From NCBI GenBank assembly GCA_015272165.1, contig JACYMF010000008.1:124001-188000 (forward strand): a DNA stretch of 64,000 nucleotides, given 5' to 3'. The stretch is from Cyanobacterium sp. T60_A2020_053. Lineage in GTDB: Bacteria > Cyanobacteriota > Cyanobacteriia > Cyanobacteriales > Cyanobacteriaceae. The notes beneath the pieces were generated by a model. It ran no database searches and was not told where the DNA came from. It worked only from the letters and a program-made list of their open reading frames with translations. Numbering within the stretch: the stretch's first letter is position 1; each line of letters opens with the position of its first letter. Positions 48,980 through 54,854 of this stretch are shown here, in pieces. The translations under genes were made by a program, and so were the position numbers.

Positions 48980-49027
48980 TGAATAATTTAATTTTGAAAC
49001 CCTCACCCCTAACCCCTCTCCCATAGC

Positions 49028-49240
49028 AGGGCGTTTTCATTCTCAAAAATGTTAGTTTCTCAAACTAGCCAATAATCTGAAATTCAGAGGTTTTTAACTA
49101 CTAATAAATCAATTAATAGTAAAAAATCCTCCTGTCTCCCTGAATCTCCCCCCTTTTTAAGGGGGGTTGGGGGGGATCATCCTTATATTGTCTTCTTGTC
49201 AAAAACAAATCAATTTTGATCCTGACTTTGAAAACACCCT
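49028..49240. mobile_element. MITE family A copy 3 (inverted)
   Basis: The ends are AGGGCGTTTTCATTCTC and CTGACTTTGAAAACACCCT. The target duplication CTCCCATAG is present on both sides, including the C-to-T change relative to CTCCCACAG that borders other copies, which is good proof of insertion into a dispersed CTCTCCCAYAGGAGAGG hairpin. The element reads in the opposite direction to copies 2, 4, 5. Confidence 0.87.
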
Positions 49241-49294
49241 GCTCCCATAGGAGAGGGGGATAAGTATATTTTTAGTAAAAAGTATTTTAGAAAA

Positions 49295-50353
49295 ATGGGA
49301 CAATTAGAATATAAACCGAATATCCGCACTTGTGGCATTAACCTTAATCATTGGTATGTAGTGGCTAGAAGTAGCGAAATTACCGCAAAACCTTACAGCG
49401 CCCGTCTCTGGCACCAAGATATAGTCATTTATCGAGATGGCGCTGGGAAAGTAATTGCGTTGGAGGATCGTTGTCCCCATCGTCAGGTAAAATTAAGCTC
49501 TGGGAAGGTGGTTAATGATAACCTTGAATGTGCTTATCATGGTTGGTTATTTAATGGAGGGGGGGAGTGCGCTGGTGTACCATATTTAGCGGAAAATCAG
49601 AAAATCCCCACTTGCAAAATTAAATCTTATCCCGTCAAAGAGTTAGATGGTTTTATCTGGATTTTTCCCGGTGACGGTGATTATGACCAAATCCAGCCCA
49701 TGGGTTTACCAGAATGGGAGCATTTGAACTATATTGCTAGTGTAGCGGAAATTGACTGCCCCGGACATTATTCTTATTTGATTGAAAATTTAATGGATAT
49801 GCACCATGGGCATCTTCATGATAATTACCAAGCATGGGCGGAAGCTACTTTAAAAGACATTGAAACCTCTGAAAAAAGAGTTGATGTTTTATATTCCGCA
49901 CAAAGTTATTATCGCATCGATAAAATTTGGTCAATTTCCCAGTTATTTTTTCCCGCACTACGGCGTTTACATCCTGAACCTCTCAAGGTAAGCTATGTTT
50001 ATCCTCATTGGGCTTCTAGTTTGGGGCAGGATTTTAAAATTTACTGTTTATTTTGCCCTGTGGATGAAACCATCACTAAGGCTTATTTGATTCATTTTAC
50101 TTCCCTTGAGTCTTTTTGGCGTTTACATAAGTTGCCTGTTTGGTTTAGGAGATTTATCAAAAATAGTTTATTTAATGCCGCTAAGGGGTTATTGGAAGGG
50201 TTAGTGCGCCAAGATGTGGAGATGATAATTCAAGAGCAAGATTCTTTTAATCGTAATCCCATCCAACGTAATTATGAGGTGAATCGGGCGCTGGTAAAGG
50301 TACAACAATTAATTATTAATCAATATCTCAATTCTCAACAAATTAGAAGTTAA
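49295..50353 (+). CDS. Rieske non-haem oxygenase (PaO/ring-hydroxylating type)
   Basis: A 352-residue oxygenase. The Rieske cluster ligands are Cys60-His62 (CPHRQV) and Cys79-His82 (ECAYHGW). The mononuclear iron site is LIENLMDMHHGHLHDNY near 168-180, with the Asp and His residues. No membrane helix is evident at the C-terminus. Related cyanobacterial proteins resemble pheophorbide a oxygenase/Tic55 and aromatic ring hydroxylases; the substrate is unknown. Preceded by a repeat-rich gap. Its stop is 4 bases before the methyltransferase start, so the two may be co-transcribed. Confidence 0.85.
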   Translation: MGQLEYKPNIRTCGINLNHWYVVARSSEITAKPYSARLWHQDIVIYRDGAGKVIALEDRCPHRQVKLSSGKVVNDNLECAYHGWLFNGGGECAGVPYLAENQKIPTCKIKSYPVKELDGFIWIFPGDGDYDQIQPMGLPEWEHLNYIASVAEIDCPGHYSYLIENLMDMHHGHLHDNYQAWAEATLKDIETSEKRVDVLYSAQSYYRIDKIWSISQLFFPALRRLHPEPLKVSYVYPHWASSLGQDFKIYCLFCPVDETITKAYLIHFTSLESFWRLHKLPVWFRRFIKNSLFNAAKGLLEGLVRQDVEMIIQEQDSFNRNPIQRNYEVNRALVKVQQLIINQYLNSQQIRS

Positions 50354-50356
50354 ACA

Positions 50357-51352
50357 ATGCAGAAATCAATATTAAACAATGATTATGAAATTAAAAATTG
50401 TTATGATTCCAACAGTGACTTGATTTTATATCATGGCGATAATAAAGATTTTTTATCAACAATTCCCGACAAATCTTTGAGTTTAATTATTACTTCTCCG
50501 CCTTATAATATGGGCAAAGAATATGAAAAAAATCTTAGTATTGAAGAATATTTAGTAAATCAATCATCAATTATTAAAGAATTTTATCGTATTTTAAAAG
50601 ATGATGGTCATATTTGTTGGCAAGTAGGAAATTATGTAAAAGATGGCGAAGTTTATCCTTTAGATATTTATTATTATCCCATATTTAAAAACTTTAATTT
50701 TCGACTTCGTAATCGTATAATTTGGCATTTTGGTCATGGACTCCACGCCTCTAAAAGGTTTTCAGGGCGCTATGAAACCATTTTATGGTTTAGTAAAACT
50801 GATAATTATTATTATAACTTGGATGCAGTTAGAGTTCCAGCAAAATATCCGGGTAAAAGACATTATAAAGGAGAAAAAAAGGGACAAATTTCAGGTAATC
50901 CACAAGGAAAAAACCCCTCTGATTATTGGGAAATAGTTTTGCAAGATTGGGAAAAAGAAATATGGGAAATTCCCAATGTAAAATCAAATCATCCCGAAAA
51001 AACTATTCATCCTTGTCAATATCCTATAGAATTAGTAGAACGCTGTGTTTTAGCTTTAACAAAGGAAAATGACCGTGTTTTTGATCCTTTTGCTGGAGTA
51101 GGCTCGTCAATTATTGCTAGTATTAAACATAAAAGAAAAGCCATAGGATGTGAACAAAAATTAGAATATATTAATGTGACAATAGATAGAATTAATAAGT
51201 ATTACAATAATGATTTAAAAATTAGACCATTAGGCAAAATTATCCATAAACCAACAGGGAAAGAAAAAGTGAGTCAAATTCCCCCTGAATGGCAAGAAGA
51301 AAAGTCTATTTATCAACAATTAAATTTATTAAATCAACAGGAAAAAAATTAA
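50357..51352 (+). CDS. Type II DNA methyltransferase, beta-class (BglII/BstYI partner)
   Basis: A 331-residue DNA methyltransferase. Motif IV TSPPYN at residues 46-51 comes before motif I VFDPFAGVGSS near 231, the order of the beta class (N4-cytosine or N6-adenine). The centre has the target-recognition region and TIHPCQYPIELVERCVLAL. It overlaps the following BglII/BstYI-type gene by one base (TAATG), as in a restriction-modification operon. BglII-type methylases modify the cytosine (N4) in AGATCT; whether this one does is inference. Only one GGGCGCT motif occurs in 1 kb, low for this window. Confidence 0.88.
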   Translation: MQKSILNNDYEIKNCYDSNSDLILYHGDNKDFLSTIPDKSLSLIITSPPYNMGKEYEKNLSIEEYLVNQSSIIKEFYRILKDDGHICWQVGNYVKDGEVYPLDIYYYPIFKNFNFRLRNRIIWHFGHGLHASKRFSGRYETILWFSKTDNYYYNLDAVRVPAKYPGKRHYKGEKKGQISGNPQGKNPSDYWEIVLQDWEKEIWEIPNVKSNHPEKTIHPCQYPIELVERCVLALTKENDRVFDPFAGVGSSIIASIKHKRKAIGCEQKLEYINVTIDRINKYYNNDLKIRPLGKIIHKPTGKEKVSQIPPEWQEEKSIYQQLNLLNQQEKN

Positions 51353-51702
51353 TGATTATTGGTGGATTGTATTCATTTAACAACGGTGAAAATTTTATTA
51401 ATCAACATTTTCAGGATGAATTTAAAGAAGTTCAAGACGTGATAAAAAATATTAATGCACTCGAACATAAAACGAAAACCAGTAAAGAACAAACTATGGT
51501 TGGTAATATGTTATACAGTCCATCTTCTCTAAATAAATCATTCAAAAAAAAATTTAGTCAAAGAAATTGGCAATCAAAAAAAATTTCTTGTAATTATTCA
51601 CAAAATTATTATACTTCTCATTATAAGCCTTCTAATCTTTCCACGAAAAGTAAATCAAGTCCTTTGGACTTATTTTTAGCAATTTCATGCTGTGGAATTT
51701 AG
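51352..51702 (+). pseudogene. Truncated BglII/BstYI-family restriction endonuclease
   Basis: A 116-residue open segment that starts at ATG 51352, one base overlapping the methylase stop. Its first 75 residues follow the BglII/BstYI family: MIIGGLYSFNNGENFI, then KTKTSKEQTMVGNMLYSPSS and LNKSFKKKFSQRNWQ. The rest, ending AISCCGI, does not continue the family and lacks the catalytic PD-(D/E)XK region (the family has a D...EVQFGK segment after about residue 120, in a protein of about 200). The nuclease is therefore truncated and presumably inactive, leaving the methylase as an orphan. No continuation was found in the other frames before 51722. Confidence 0.75.
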
Positions 51703-51721
51703 GTTATATTAGTGCAGTTTT

Positions 51722-52546
51722 TTAATTTTTACTAACCGTAATAAATTTGCATTCTGTAAAGGGTTTAATTTCCCTCATTTTTGCTTTTTCTGGGTCAAAA
51801 TCTATGGGAAATTTAGTAAATAAATCATAACAAGCATTGGTTAAATTTGTTTTAGTTAAATCTGTTTCTTTAAGAATAGCTCCAGCTAAATTAGCATTAA
51901 TCAATGTAGCTTCACTTAAATTGGCTTCCTGAAAGTTACTTTTTTTAAAATTAGTTTTATTAAGATTAGCCTTAGTTAAATCAGCCTGAAAAAAATTACT
52001 ATAAGATAAGTCTAAATTATCTAATTTAGCTTCTTGTAAATTAGCATTTTTGAGTAAATTATTAGATACTTGAGACTGATTAAAACTGATTAAATGAGTA
52101 TCTTTCAAAAAAATGATCATATAGCGTTTTCTTTCTCCATTTAACTCAGCTAATGTTGCTTGGGTATCAGCTCTTAATAGGTTAAAGTCCTGCTGTAATT
52201 GCCATGAGGAATAATTTAAAGTTAATTGGGTAATTTGATTAAGATAATTACTGAGAATATTATGACGATAACTTTCTAATTCCAGGTTATATTGAGCATT
52301 ATTATCTTGAATTTGTAGTGGTCTATACAAAAATTGCTCACTAAAAATGTTGGAAATGGTCAGCGCCCCTAAAATTAGGGTAGTAGTAGAAGTAATTAAA
52401 GCGCCCACAATCGGTCCAATGGCGATTTCTGGAATATGCACTGAACCTGTTACTGCCAAGGCAATGGCACTTAAAAATGATGATAAGGTGCGCTGAAATT
52501 TGCTAAAAATGCGGGGTAGTAATGGCTTTTTTTTCTTTTCTTCCAT
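51722..52546 (-). CDS. Membrane-anchored pentapeptide-repeat protein
   Basis: A 274-residue protein. Residues 25-70 contain two membrane segments (FLSAIALAVTGSVHIPEIAIGPIVGA and TTTLILGALTISNIF). The middle is alpha-helical, and residues 165-240 hold pentapeptide repeats A(N/D)Lxx (ANLQEAKLDNLDLSYSNFFQ and following) that form a right-handed beta-helix. It ends close to the truncated endonuclease. Function unknown. Convergent with the restriction-modification locus. Confidence 0.78.
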   Translation of the reverse strand: MEEKKKKPLLPRIFSKFQRTLSSFLSAIALAVTGSVHIPEIAIGPIVGALITSTTTLILGALTISNIFSEQFLYRPLQIQDNNAQYNLELESYRHNILSNYLNQITQLTLNYSSWQLQQDFNLLRADTQATLAELNGERKRYMIIFLKDTHLISFNQSQVSNNLLKNANLQEAKLDNLDLSYSNFFQADLTKANLNKTNFKKSNFQEANLSEATLINANLAGAILKETDLTKTNLTNACYDLFTKFPIDFDPEKAKMREIKPFTECKFITVSKN

Positions 52547-52949
52547 CAGTAAATAAATGTGAAAATTTCACTTTAATTAGGGCTGAATAATTCAGAAATA
52601 TTGATTCATCAAGGTTAAGACGGGCTACAGTCGTCAAAAAATATACAAAATTACGCTTTTTTTATAAAAATGTAGTTTAAATACGAGATTACATATAATA
52701 CACTAAGATAGCAAAACTTCATCATTATCAATTGTCCATTTGTCCTTATGAATGCACTTTTCAGTGCCATCTAATTATACCGAAAGTTCCAGATAAAAAC
52801 TTTTAACAAGAGCTTTAAACCCCTTACCTTGTAATTAAAATCCCTTATATTTTCAAGCAATCAGTTCAAATCAAACTGAGTTTATATTGAGTAAGTAAGT
52901 TAATATATATGAACGAAATCATAACATTAGGTAATTACCTTCATTAACG
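52547..52949. promoter_or_regulatory. Upstream region of the antiporter gene
   Basis: A 403-base gap with a CATTGTCC-type heptamer near 52733, a degraded family D trace (AACAAGAGCTTTAAACCCCTTACC) near 52806, and the start region. Just before the antiporter, 52909-52947 is a short open reading of 12 codons (ATG to TAA) ending 2 bases upstream of the antiporter ATG. No other gene is visible. Confidence 0.35.
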
Positions 52950-54854
52950 ATGGAAGAATCTTTTACCCTTACCCTACAAATCATTATCACTGTTTGCGCA
53001 GGAATTAGCTCTCAGGTATTCGGGGAATATTTCAAAATACCTAGTATTGTCTTTTTACTCATTTTCGGAGTAATTTTAGGGCGAGATATGCTAGGTATTC
53101 TGCAACCTGAGTTGTTGGGGGTAGGGTTAGAGGTTTTAGTTGCCCTAGCGGTGGCGATTATTCTTTTTGAAGGGGGATTAAACCTAGAATTGCGTCAGTT
53201 AGATAAGGTATCGGGCAGTTTACGCAATCTCGTCACTATCGGTACTTTAATTACTTTTCTTTGTGGGGGGGTAGCGGCGCACTTCCTCGCTGAATTTCCG
53301 TGGGAAATTGCCTTTTTATACGCTTCTTTGGTGGTTGTAACTGGTCCAACCGTAGTAGCGCCCCTCCTCAAACAGGTAGCGGTGGATAAGAGAGTTGCCA
53401 CAATTTTGGAAGGGGAAGGGGTTTTAATTGATCCGGTGGGCGCCATTCTCGCTGTGGTGGTATTAGATACCATTATTAATAGTTCTGCTGATCCTCTCGA
53501 TATTATCACGAGGTTAGTATTTCGCTTGGGCATAGGGGCGCTAATCGGGGGGCTAAGTGGCTATTTTTTAGGATATTTTCAAAAAAATGCTAATTTTGTT
53601 CCTGAAGAATTAAAAAATTTAGTGGTTTTAGCCGGAGTATGGGGTACATTTGGACTCTCTCAAATGATTTTAAGTGAGTCGGGATTAATGGCAACGGTAA
53701 TCGCTGGTATTGTGGTGCGCGCTTCTGGTATCCCCGAAGAAAGGTTATTACTACGTTTTAAAGGACAACTGACGGTTTTATGTGTTTCAGTTTTATTTAT
53801 ACTCCTCGCCGCCGATTTATCTATAGATAGTATTTTTGCACTAGGTGGAGGCAGTGTTTTAACCGTATTGGCATTAATGTTCATCGTGCGCCCTTTAAGC
53901 GTGATCATTTGTACTTGGAATAGTGGTTTAAATAGCCGTCAAAAGTTATTTATAGCTTGGATTGCTCCTAGGGGTATCGTTTCAGCTTCTGTTGCCTCTT
54001 TATTCTCTATTCTATTAACCCAAAACGGTATCAATGGTGGTCAATCTATTAAGGGTTTAGTCTTTCTCACCATTATGATGACGGTGTTTGCTCAGGGTTT
54101 AACTGCTGGTCGAGTAGCAAAATGGTTACGAATAACATCGGCTCAGGCGACGGGCGCTGTTATTATCGGTTGTAATCCCATCGGGCGCTTATTGGGGCGT
54201 ATTTATCAAAGTCAAGGAGAATCAGTTGTTTTGATTGATACAGATACAGAGGCTTGTAACCGTGCCAAACAAGATAATTTACCTGTGTTTGAAAGTAGTG
54301 GTTTAGACCCGGATGTCATGGAAAAAGCAGGAATTACCTCCGTAGGCACTTTAGTCGCCTTAACAAATAATGGCGATGTTAATTTGATGATTGCCCAGCG
54401 CGCCATCGAAGAATTTTCTCCCCCCAAAGTATTAGCAGTTTTTCCTAATGAGAAAAAAGAAAATAATATTAAAGCTAATAAGCAAAAAATAGCCCAACCT
54501 TTTATTAACGATATACAAATCAAAACTTGGAATCAATACATTAACGATGGGTTATTTCGTCTCGGTAAAACTGTGATTAGGGGTGAGGGAGAAGCCATTG
54601 ATTTTCAACAAATTCACCTCCAAGCCTTAATTACCGGAGGGGAATTATTACCATTACTGGTAAAAAGAAAAGACAAGTTAGAGATAGTCCAATCCACCGA
54701 AGAATGGAAGTTAGGAGATGAAATTATCTATTTACTACACGACCCTCGACCACAACTATTGAAAAGGCTATCGGGAGTTTCTGCCTCTCCTCGTCTCACT
54801 TTAGAAAAGTTACCCAAAGTGGAAGAAATACCTCTTTCGGTTAATGTTAAATAA
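52950..54854 (+). CDS. CPA1-family cation/proton antiporter with TrkA-N domain
   Basis: A 634-residue membrane protein. About twelve transmembrane segments occupy residues 5-405, with the conserved LFEGGLNLELRQLD near 72 and ILEGEGVLIDPVGAILAV near 151 (the acidic ion-binding residues). The C-terminal cytoplasmic part holds an NAD-binding RCK domain (GAVIIGCNPIGRLLGRIYQSQGESVVLIDTD near 395) and a TrkA-C-like tail. Such proteins exchange Na+ or K+ for H+ and help with salt and pH homeostasis; cyanobacteria have several (NhaS group), and I cannot say which this is. Six or more GGGCGC-type motifs. Confidence 0.88.
   Translation: MEESFTLTLQIIITVCAGISSQVFGEYFKIPSIVFLLIFGVILGRDMLGILQPELLGVGLEVLVALAVAIILFEGGLNLELRQLDKVSGSLRNLVTIGTLITFLCGGVAAHFLAEFPWEIAFLYASLVVVTGPTVVAPLLKQVAVDKRVATILEGEGVLIDPVGAILAVVVLDTIINSSADPLDIITRLVFRLGIGALIGGLSGYFLGYFQKNANFVPEELKNLVVLAGVWGTFGLSQMILSESGLMATVIAGIVVRASGIPEERLLLRFKGQLTVLCVSVLFILLAADLSIDSIFALGGGSVLTVLALMFIVRPLSVIICTWNSGLNSRQKLFIAWIAPRGIVSASVASLFSILLTQNGINGGQSIKGLVFLTIMMTVFAQGLTAGRVAKWLRITSAQATGAVIIGCNPIGRLLGRIYQSQGESVVLIDTDTEACNRAKQDNLPVFESSGLDPDVMEKAGITSVGTLVALTNNGDVNLMIAQRAIEEFSPPKVLAVFPNEKKENNIKANKQKIAQPFINDIQIKTWNQYINDGLFRLGKTVIRGEGEAIDFQQIHLQALITGGELLPLLVKRKDKLEIVQSTEEWKLGDEIIYLLHDPRPQLLKRLSGVSASPRLTLEKLPKVEEIPLSVNVK

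What the first reader, a model, noticed from the sequence alone, without database searches (positions are those of the whole stretch)
50357..51722. Orphaned BglII/BstYI-type methylase beside a truncated nuclease
The methylase is intact, whereas the nuclease keeps its first about 75 residues of family similarity and then ends in unrelated sequence, without the catalytic segment. If GATC-containing sites such as AGATCT or RGATCY remain methylated, the cell keeps an epigenetic mark without restriction. The pair is poor in the iterated motif, which suggests it arrived later than the rest.
Basis: partly seen in the sequence, partly recalled or inferred. Interest (0 to 1): 0.56.

Follow-up and report, generated by a model that had tools for sequence, protein, structure and literature searches.

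The report
Solitary methylase with recently broken nuclease
A cyanobacterium carries a working-looking DNA methylase beside the stump of its partner DNA-cutting enzyme, and its genome is still nearly empty of the sites that enzyme should cut, so it seems to have been caught soon after the cutter died.

Summary
An intact methylase (50357-51352) overlaps the start of a BstYI-type nuclease frame (51352-51702). That frame follows the family for 95-99 residues, then ends in 17-21 unrelated ones. The catalytic segment is missing, and a profile finds no other piece of this nuclease in the assembly. It is BstYI-type, not BglII-type.

New evidence: RGATCY is depleted here (9 found, 65.9 expected in 280 kb) but not in two same-genus genomes without the pair (107/75.5, 135/101.2). 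Two genomes with an open nuclease frame are depleted too (ratios 0.05, 0.25); four with a solitary methylase are not (1.09-1.30). So the likely site is RGATCY, the nuclease acted here for long, and its loss looks recent. "Arrived later" is not supported.

Relatives often lack the nuclease: an open frame was found in 3 of 35 methylase-bearing cyanobacterial genomes searched (23 of them from two genera). The methylase is in 12 of 12 Microcystis-type and 11 of 11 g92 (probably Thermosynechococcus) genomes, evolves under purifying selection, and a published Microcystis methylome lists RGATm4CY. This is a known kind, a solitary methylase left by a decayed restriction system, unusually well documented.

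The parts
50357..51352 (+). DNA methylase of the BstYI type (predicted RGATm4CY), intact, 331 aa; SPPY and DPFAGVG motifs
   Evidence: PF01555 E=1.2e-52; 109 of 111 conserved columns kept; 56-69% identity to 8 cyanobacterial relatives
51352..51648 (+). N-terminal half of a BstYI-type restriction nuclease (family positions 1-99 of 187)
   Evidence: BstYI E=1.4e-12; profile positions 1-99; 16 of 17 conserved N-terminal columns kept
51649..51702 (+). non-family tail of the truncated frame and its stop, beyond the break
   Evidence: similarity ends at 51636-51648; apart from its own place, only chance-level matches (E 0.27 or more) in the held G000, G002 and G003 stretches and the pentapeptide loci
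49295..50353 (+). upstream neighbour: Rieske-type oxygenase; the methylase ATG follows its stop after 3 bases
   Evidence: NCBIfam matches below cut-off; 78-82% identical in four same-genus genomes, with other genes next to it
51722..52546 (-). downstream neighbour: pentapeptide-repeat protein, convergent with the truncated frame
   Evidence: NCBIfam matches below cut-off; at least 0.7 Mb from the Rieske gene in the 7 relatives that have both on one contig, so the locus is a rearranged junction

Best explanation
This is the remains of a Type IIP restriction-modification pair of the BstYI family that targeted RGATCY. Shown: the methylase frame and its conserved residues are intact; the nuclease lost its catalytic and C-terminal half; the genome is depleted of RGATCY while two same-genus genomes are not. 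Inferred: the pair was gained by transfer, restricted RGATCY long enough to purge most sites, then lost the 3' half of the nuclease gene in a deletion or rearrangement at what is now the junction with the pentapeptide gene; the methylase still makes RGATm4CY, now without a cutter. The loss is recent compared with the time of residence, because the depletion is as strong as in genomes with an open nuclease and the nuclease stump shows no drift. It would be an early stage of a path completed in other cyanobacteria, where the same methylase is a conserved solitary enzyme.
For: Truncation before the residues aligned with BstYI D119/E128/Q130; no second half elsewhere in the genome. RGATCY observed/expected: window genome 9/65.9 = 0.14; same genus without the pair 1.42 and 1.33; open nuclease frame G053 0.05 and G301 0.25 (the latter with an in-frame insertion); solitary methylase G443 1.22, G171 1.30, G449 1.22, G096 1.09; genomes without a close homologue G026 (same genus as G053) 0.70 and G021 0.87. 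RGATCY share of GATC sites, window genome against the two relatives: Fisher p=6e-25. The stump keeps 16 of 17 conserved N-terminal columns. A Microcystis panniformis methylome lists RGATCY with m4C at position 5 (PMC4730716), and 12 of 12 genomes of the Microcystis-type genus carry this methylase. In that genus G445 has an open nuclease between methylase and glycosyltransferase, where the solitary locus L051 has about 40 bases. dN/dS of solitary copies: 0.11 in Microcystis, 0.12-0.19 in g92.
Against: No methylome or expression data for this organism. Depletion could also mean that RGATCY is still cut here by an unrelated nuclease. Counts on short stretches around named loci separate the classes poorly: open 195/305.0 = 0.64, broken 0.37, absent 0.79, and three 'absent' loci look depleted (L070 2/7.8, L071 2/7.1, L080 2/7.6). 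G026, without a close homologue, shows mild depletion (0.70, p=0.003). Other palindromes are depleted too: RCATGY is at 0.23 or lower in 8 of the 11 genomes and among the five lowest classes in all 11, whatever their state, and YACGTR (3/24.8) is lower than RGATCY in the window genome. In Microcystis the direction, loss rather than gain of the nuclease, is the simplest reading, not proven.
Confidence: 0.76

Rival explanations
1. RGATCY restriction is still active: an unrelated nuclease elsewhere in the genome cuts RGATCY (or a subset) and the intact methylase protects against it, so the pair is uncoupled rather than dead.
For: The depletion shows no sign of relaxing (0 found against 27.8 expected in the first 120 kb of contig C8); the methylase is intact. 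Two methylase loci of the family stand beside other nuclease-like frames, judged by eye (L071, L077).
Against: No other BstYI-family nuclease in the genome; no candidate identified. Unrelated nuclease families were not searched for.
Confidence: 0.12
2. The methylase is a passing relic: it has no function left, has few targets, and will be lost as the nuclease was.
For: Only 9 RGATCY sites in 280 kb remain; no close relative with the same locus was found in which to test selection after the loss.
Against: The methylase shows no decay; homologues stay under purifying selection without a nuclease in two genera and are in 12 of 12 and 11 of 11 of their genomes.
Confidence: 0.25
3. The methylase is kept as a shield against GATC-type nucleases of other cells or mobile elements (anti-restriction, transformation), not as a regulator.
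For: The family is spread across many phyla, mostly with a nuclease, so cutters of this site are common.
Against: Nothing here tests it, and the flanking genes are not of mobile elements.
Confidence: 0.1
4. Assembly or sequencing error: the nuclease is complete in the cell.
For: Draft assembly in 118 contigs.
Against: The break is inside a 201-kb contig, no other frame or contig continues the family, an ordinary gene stands 20 bases further on, and truncations or scraps occur in relatives.
Confidence: 0.03

Closest known systems
BstYI (RGATCY) Type IIP restriction-modification system; PDB 1sdo, 1vrr, 2p0j
   Same: N-terminal half of the nuclease; RGATCY depletion of the host. The site of BstYI is recalled.
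   Different: Catalytic and C-terminal half of the nuclease missing
Methylase of Microcystis (homologue 64-65% identical); RGATm4CY is listed in the M. panniformis methylome (PMC4730716)
   Same: Same family; no complete nuclease found in 11 of 12 genomes
   Different: No stump beside it in the loci examined and RGATCY not depleted in the one genome counted (G443); here a stump remains and depletion persists
M.Ssp6803II (sll0729), solitary GGm4CC methylase of Synechocystis (PMC6560206, PMC11662147)
   Same: Solitary cyanobacterial N4-cytosine methylase
   Different: Other site (GGCC); its function was studied with mutants, which is not so here
BglII system (PF09195)
   Same: Distant nuclease relative; GATC core (recalled)
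   Different: The frame does not reach the family cut-off. Two BglII-like pairs (L011, L012; likeness recalled, distant match) have methylases 47-48% identical and convergent gene order

Membership tests
BstYI-type Type IIP R-M system | amino-methylase with SPPY and FxGxG motifs | tested here: met
   PF01555 and invariant motif columns
BstYI-type Type IIP R-M system | adjacent BstYI-homologous nuclease gene | tested here: met
   present, but N-terminal 95-99 residues only
BstYI-type Type IIP R-M system | catalytic Asp/Glu/Gln (119/128/130; role recalled) and C-terminal half | tested here: not met
   the frame leaves the family before that segment; so not a working R-M system
BstYI-type Type IIP R-M system | recognition of RGATCY | tested here: inconclusive
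   indirect: lineage-specific RGATCY depletion; RGATm4CY in a genus that carries the homologue
Solitary (orphan) DNA methylase | no cognate nuclease nearby or elsewhere | tested here: met
   only the truncated frame of this nuclease family in the genome; unrelated nuclease families not searched
Solitary (orphan) DNA methylase | active methylation in vivo | not testable with these tools
   no methylome held for this organism
BglII-type system | nuclease scoring over the BglII family cut-off | tested here: not met
   PF09195 15.0 bits, cut-off 26

The most novel reading that the evidence does not exclude
Cyanobacteria repeatedly turn one particular restriction pair into a solitary RGATm4CY methylase: the nuclease is lost by truncation, nonsense, insertion or excision, the methylase stays under selection and becomes a core gene of whole genera, and the RGATCY depletion left by the old nuclease fades. 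The window genome is the intermediate, with a dead nuclease and a depletion that has not yet relaxed. This would contradict, for this family, the general finding that solitary methylases rarely arise by decay of complete systems (PMC4176335).
Probability: 0.45. Interest if true: 0.62.

Novelty: new member of a known kind. Interest (0 to 1): 0.48.

Why it matters
[quoted passage not shown] Here one family shows each stage: complete pair, broken nuclease with the site depletion still in place, and solitary core methylase without depletion. It gives a species in which the effect of losing only the nuclease can be tested while the genome still bears the imprint, and it offers a candidate gene for the RGATm4CY mark already reported in Microcystis.

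Tried and rejected
Late arrival from motif poverty: rejected. HIP1 as the iterated motif: rejected for this genome (1 in the window; 2 in 280 kb). Frameshift instead of truncation: no family match in other frames. Depletion caused by methylation itself rather than by cutting: unlikely, since four genomes with a solitary methylase show none. Empty-site comparison: not possible, because the two flanking genes are far apart in the relatives that have both on one contig.

Enrichment of nuclease loss in cyanobacteria against other phyla: 21 lost and 5 open against 16 and 49, Fisher p=1.1e-6 (91 rows). Choices made: six near-identical Microcystis rows dropped before the tree; rows cut by contig ends set aside; L005 and L126 counted as lost and L128 as open; L116 counted as non-cyanobacterial because it is nearly identical to a Chloroflexales locus. 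Only 4 independent contrasts lie on starred branches (sign test median p 0.5), so the enrichment is not shown after correction for kinship. The named sample is the best 80 of at least 565 matches. The tree is a quick one with 36 of 91 inner branches open.

The dN/dS between the window methylase and its nearest relatives is near saturation (dS 0.8-1.4) and was not used. Rfam search of 49000-53000: nothing. Structure prediction was not run; the alignment already decides the point. A survey of Chloroflexota genomes as a comparison could not be run.

Full report
What is there. The methylase frame 50357-51352 (+) is intact. It starts 3 bases after the stop of a Rieske-type oxygenase gene, and its stop codon overlaps the ATG of the next frame, 51352-51702. 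That frame matches BstYI over residues 5-78 (E=1.4e-12) and a complete 193-residue relative in G053 without gaps over residues 1-95 at 43%; a profile of 49 complete relatives extends the match to position 99 of 187. Then come 17-21 unrelated residues and a stop. The residues aligned with BstYI D119, E128 and Q130 (that these are catalytic is recalled) are not present. The genome (3.36 Mb, 118 contigs, 99.84% complete) has no other match to this nuclease profile. The window is G000:C8:124001-188000.

The methylase looks functional. Of 111 columns conserved at 95% or more in 53 methylases of intact pairs the window keeps 109. The nuclease stump keeps 16 of 17 conserved N-terminal columns, so it shows no drift beyond the truncation.

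The family. A scan of genome contigs with nine cyanobacterial methylases returned 80 loci (the best 80 of at least 565) from many bacterial phyla and from archaea. Of these 80, 5 run off the contig; of the other 75, 52 have a complete nuclease directly downstream (180 or more of 187 profile positions in one open frame), 7 a broken one and 16 none of this family. Two of the 16 have another nuclease-like frame there, judged by eye (L071, L077). The cyanobacteria among the 80, L116 set aside as doubtful, are 3 open (L045, L061, L095), 2 broken (L041, L088) and 5 without (all Microcystis).

Cyanobacteria in the whole-genome set. The methylase (E<=1e-100) occurs in 17 of 386 sampled genomes of the phylum. 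In 35 methylase-bearing cyanobacterial genomes searched with a nuclease profile (22; 19, of which 6 repeats), an open frame is found in 3: G053, G445, and G301, which carries an in-frame insertion. In one (G167) the nuclease is split from the methylase by a transposase-like gene (judged by eye) and has a stop at the Gln of the catalytic segment. Six have remnants: G000 (1-115, read through its stop), G041 (1-34), G449 and G455 (166-188, at the end of the methylase gene), G313 and G295 (152-185, elsewhere in the genome). In 25 none was found. Of the 35, 23 belong to two genera (12 g67, 11 g92); the 35 fall into 12 genera, 3 of which have an open frame. On the methylase tree the least number of changes between open and not open is 18-19 over the 91 rows. 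Such a count cannot tell gain from loss, but the remnants show loss in several lineages. The excess of loss in cyanobacteria is strong by plain count but not established after correction for kinship.

Solitary copies are kept. All 12 held genomes of genus g67 and all 11 of g92 carry the methylase. g67 is taken to be Microcystis: its G313 copy is identical to that of M. aeruginosa NIES-4325 in the tree. g92 is probably Thermosynechococcus (the 2,593,857-base contig of G171 is recalled as the length of strain BP-1). The neighbouring genes are shared by the seven g67 loci and by the three g92 loci examined. Summed dN over summed dS is 0.106 in Microcystis (66 pairs, those with dS over 0.01 counted) and 0.12-0.19 for the three g92 pairs. 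In Microcystis the change can be seen at DNA level: G445 has an open nuclease frame (190 aa) between methylase and glycosyltransferase; in L051 the adjoining stretches match at 98.1% and 96.6%, and about 40 bases stand where G445 has about 650. Loss in L051 is the simplest reading; gain in G445 is not excluded.

Specificity and history from site counts. In 280 kb of the window genome RGATCY occurs 9 times against 65.9 expected from its own flank frequencies (0.14); AGATCT 1 of 20.5, GGATCC 0 of 12.9. In two same-genus genomes that lack the pair it is 107/75.5 and 135/101.2. Genomes with an open nuclease frame are depleted: G053 2/40.2, G301 13/52.2. Four genomes with a solitary methylase are not: G443 51/41.7, G171 133/102.5, G449 162/133.3, G096 78/71.6. 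Genomes without a close homologue: G026 59/83.8 (mild, p=0.003), G021 108/124.7. In these 11 genomes the depletion follows the nuclease, not the methylase. It gives RGATCY as the likely site independently of homology, points to long residence, and makes the truncation look recent. Against this: in short stretches around 68 of the 75 assessable named loci (those of 6 kb or more) the separation is weak, open 195/305.0, broken 11/29.8, absent 80/101.9, and three absent loci look depleted (L070, L071, L080); RGATCY is nonetheless the lowest of the 22 palindrome classes counted in the open pool. RCATGY is low in most of the 11 genomes whatever their state, and YACGTR is lower than RGATCY in the window genome. 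That sites of long-resident systems are avoided more often, and that avoidance can be a trace of a lost system, is reported in PMC4687349 (passages seen, one from the abstract).

Literature. The M. panniformis FACHB 1757 methylome lists RGATCY, m4C at position 5, 808 of 4,232 motif positions (19%), beside GATC m6A; the other m4C motifs there are detected at 18-24% (PMC4730716, passages). The passages assign no gene; assigning it to this methylase is my inference, and I did not examine that strain's genome. I saw no description of this solitary family in cyanobacteria in the listings, of which only PMC4730716 was opened. PMC4176335 (passages seen, one from the abstract) suggests that solitary genes rarely arise by decay of complete systems; this family looks like a counter-example. 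For what a solitary cyanobacterial m4C methylase can do, M.Ssp6803II is the model (PMC6560206, passages; PMC11662147, start of abstract in listings).

Interpretation. Shown: truncation, intact methylase, no other match to the nuclease, depletion that two same-genus genomes lack, remnants and absences in relatives. Inferred: activity and site of this methylase, order of events, recency. Open: whether anything else cuts RGATCY here, and what the mark does with so few sites left.

Noticed in passing
window; G000 sample L169-L182: HIP1 (GCGATCGC) is nearly absent (2 in 280 kb against 193 and 179 in two same-genus genomes), while GGGCGCTG/CAGCGCCC is iterated (270 against 10 and 10): the usual cyanobacterial iterated palindrome seems to be gone and another motif iterated in its place.
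   Followed up: partly
G000 sample L169-L182: YACGTR is strongly depleted (3 of 24.8) in this genome, less so in G003 (27 of 40.5) and G002 (35 of 44.9): possible trace of another restriction system.
   Followed up: no
samples of G000, G002, G003, G026, G053, G096, G301, G443: RCATGY is at 0.23 or lower of expectation in these 8 of 11 cyanobacterial genomes, with or without this pair.
   Followed up: no
L084, L099, L100, L117: Four Lokiarchaeota loci carry the same methylase without a nuclease of this family; a downstream gene looks shared by all four (by eye), and dN/dS is 0.10-0.16 in the two pairs compared: a solitary methylase in Asgard archaea.
   Followed up: partly
G313:C2:167891-167992 and G295:C11:7249-7350: A C-terminal scrap of the nuclease (positions 152-185) lies away from the methylase in two Microcystis-type genomes.
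   Followed up: no
L128:2459-3136 (G301): The nuclease frame carries an in-frame insertion of roughly 35 residues before the catalytic segment and stays open (225 aa).
   Followed up: partly
L078:6933-7145: A Chloroflexota nuclease frame has an in-frame internal deletion that joins about the first 20 residues to the last 31.
   Followed up: no
L113 and L116: Nearly identical methylase loci are filed under Chloroflexales and 'Cyanobacteria bacterium M5B4': one of the bins is probably mislabelled.
   Followed up: no
G000:C12:88964-89770, C27:9471-10205, C15:1762-2472: Three other methylases of the D12 family (PF02086, the family of Dam) over the Pfam cut-off in this genome; GATC inside RGATCY may also carry m6A.
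   Followed up: no
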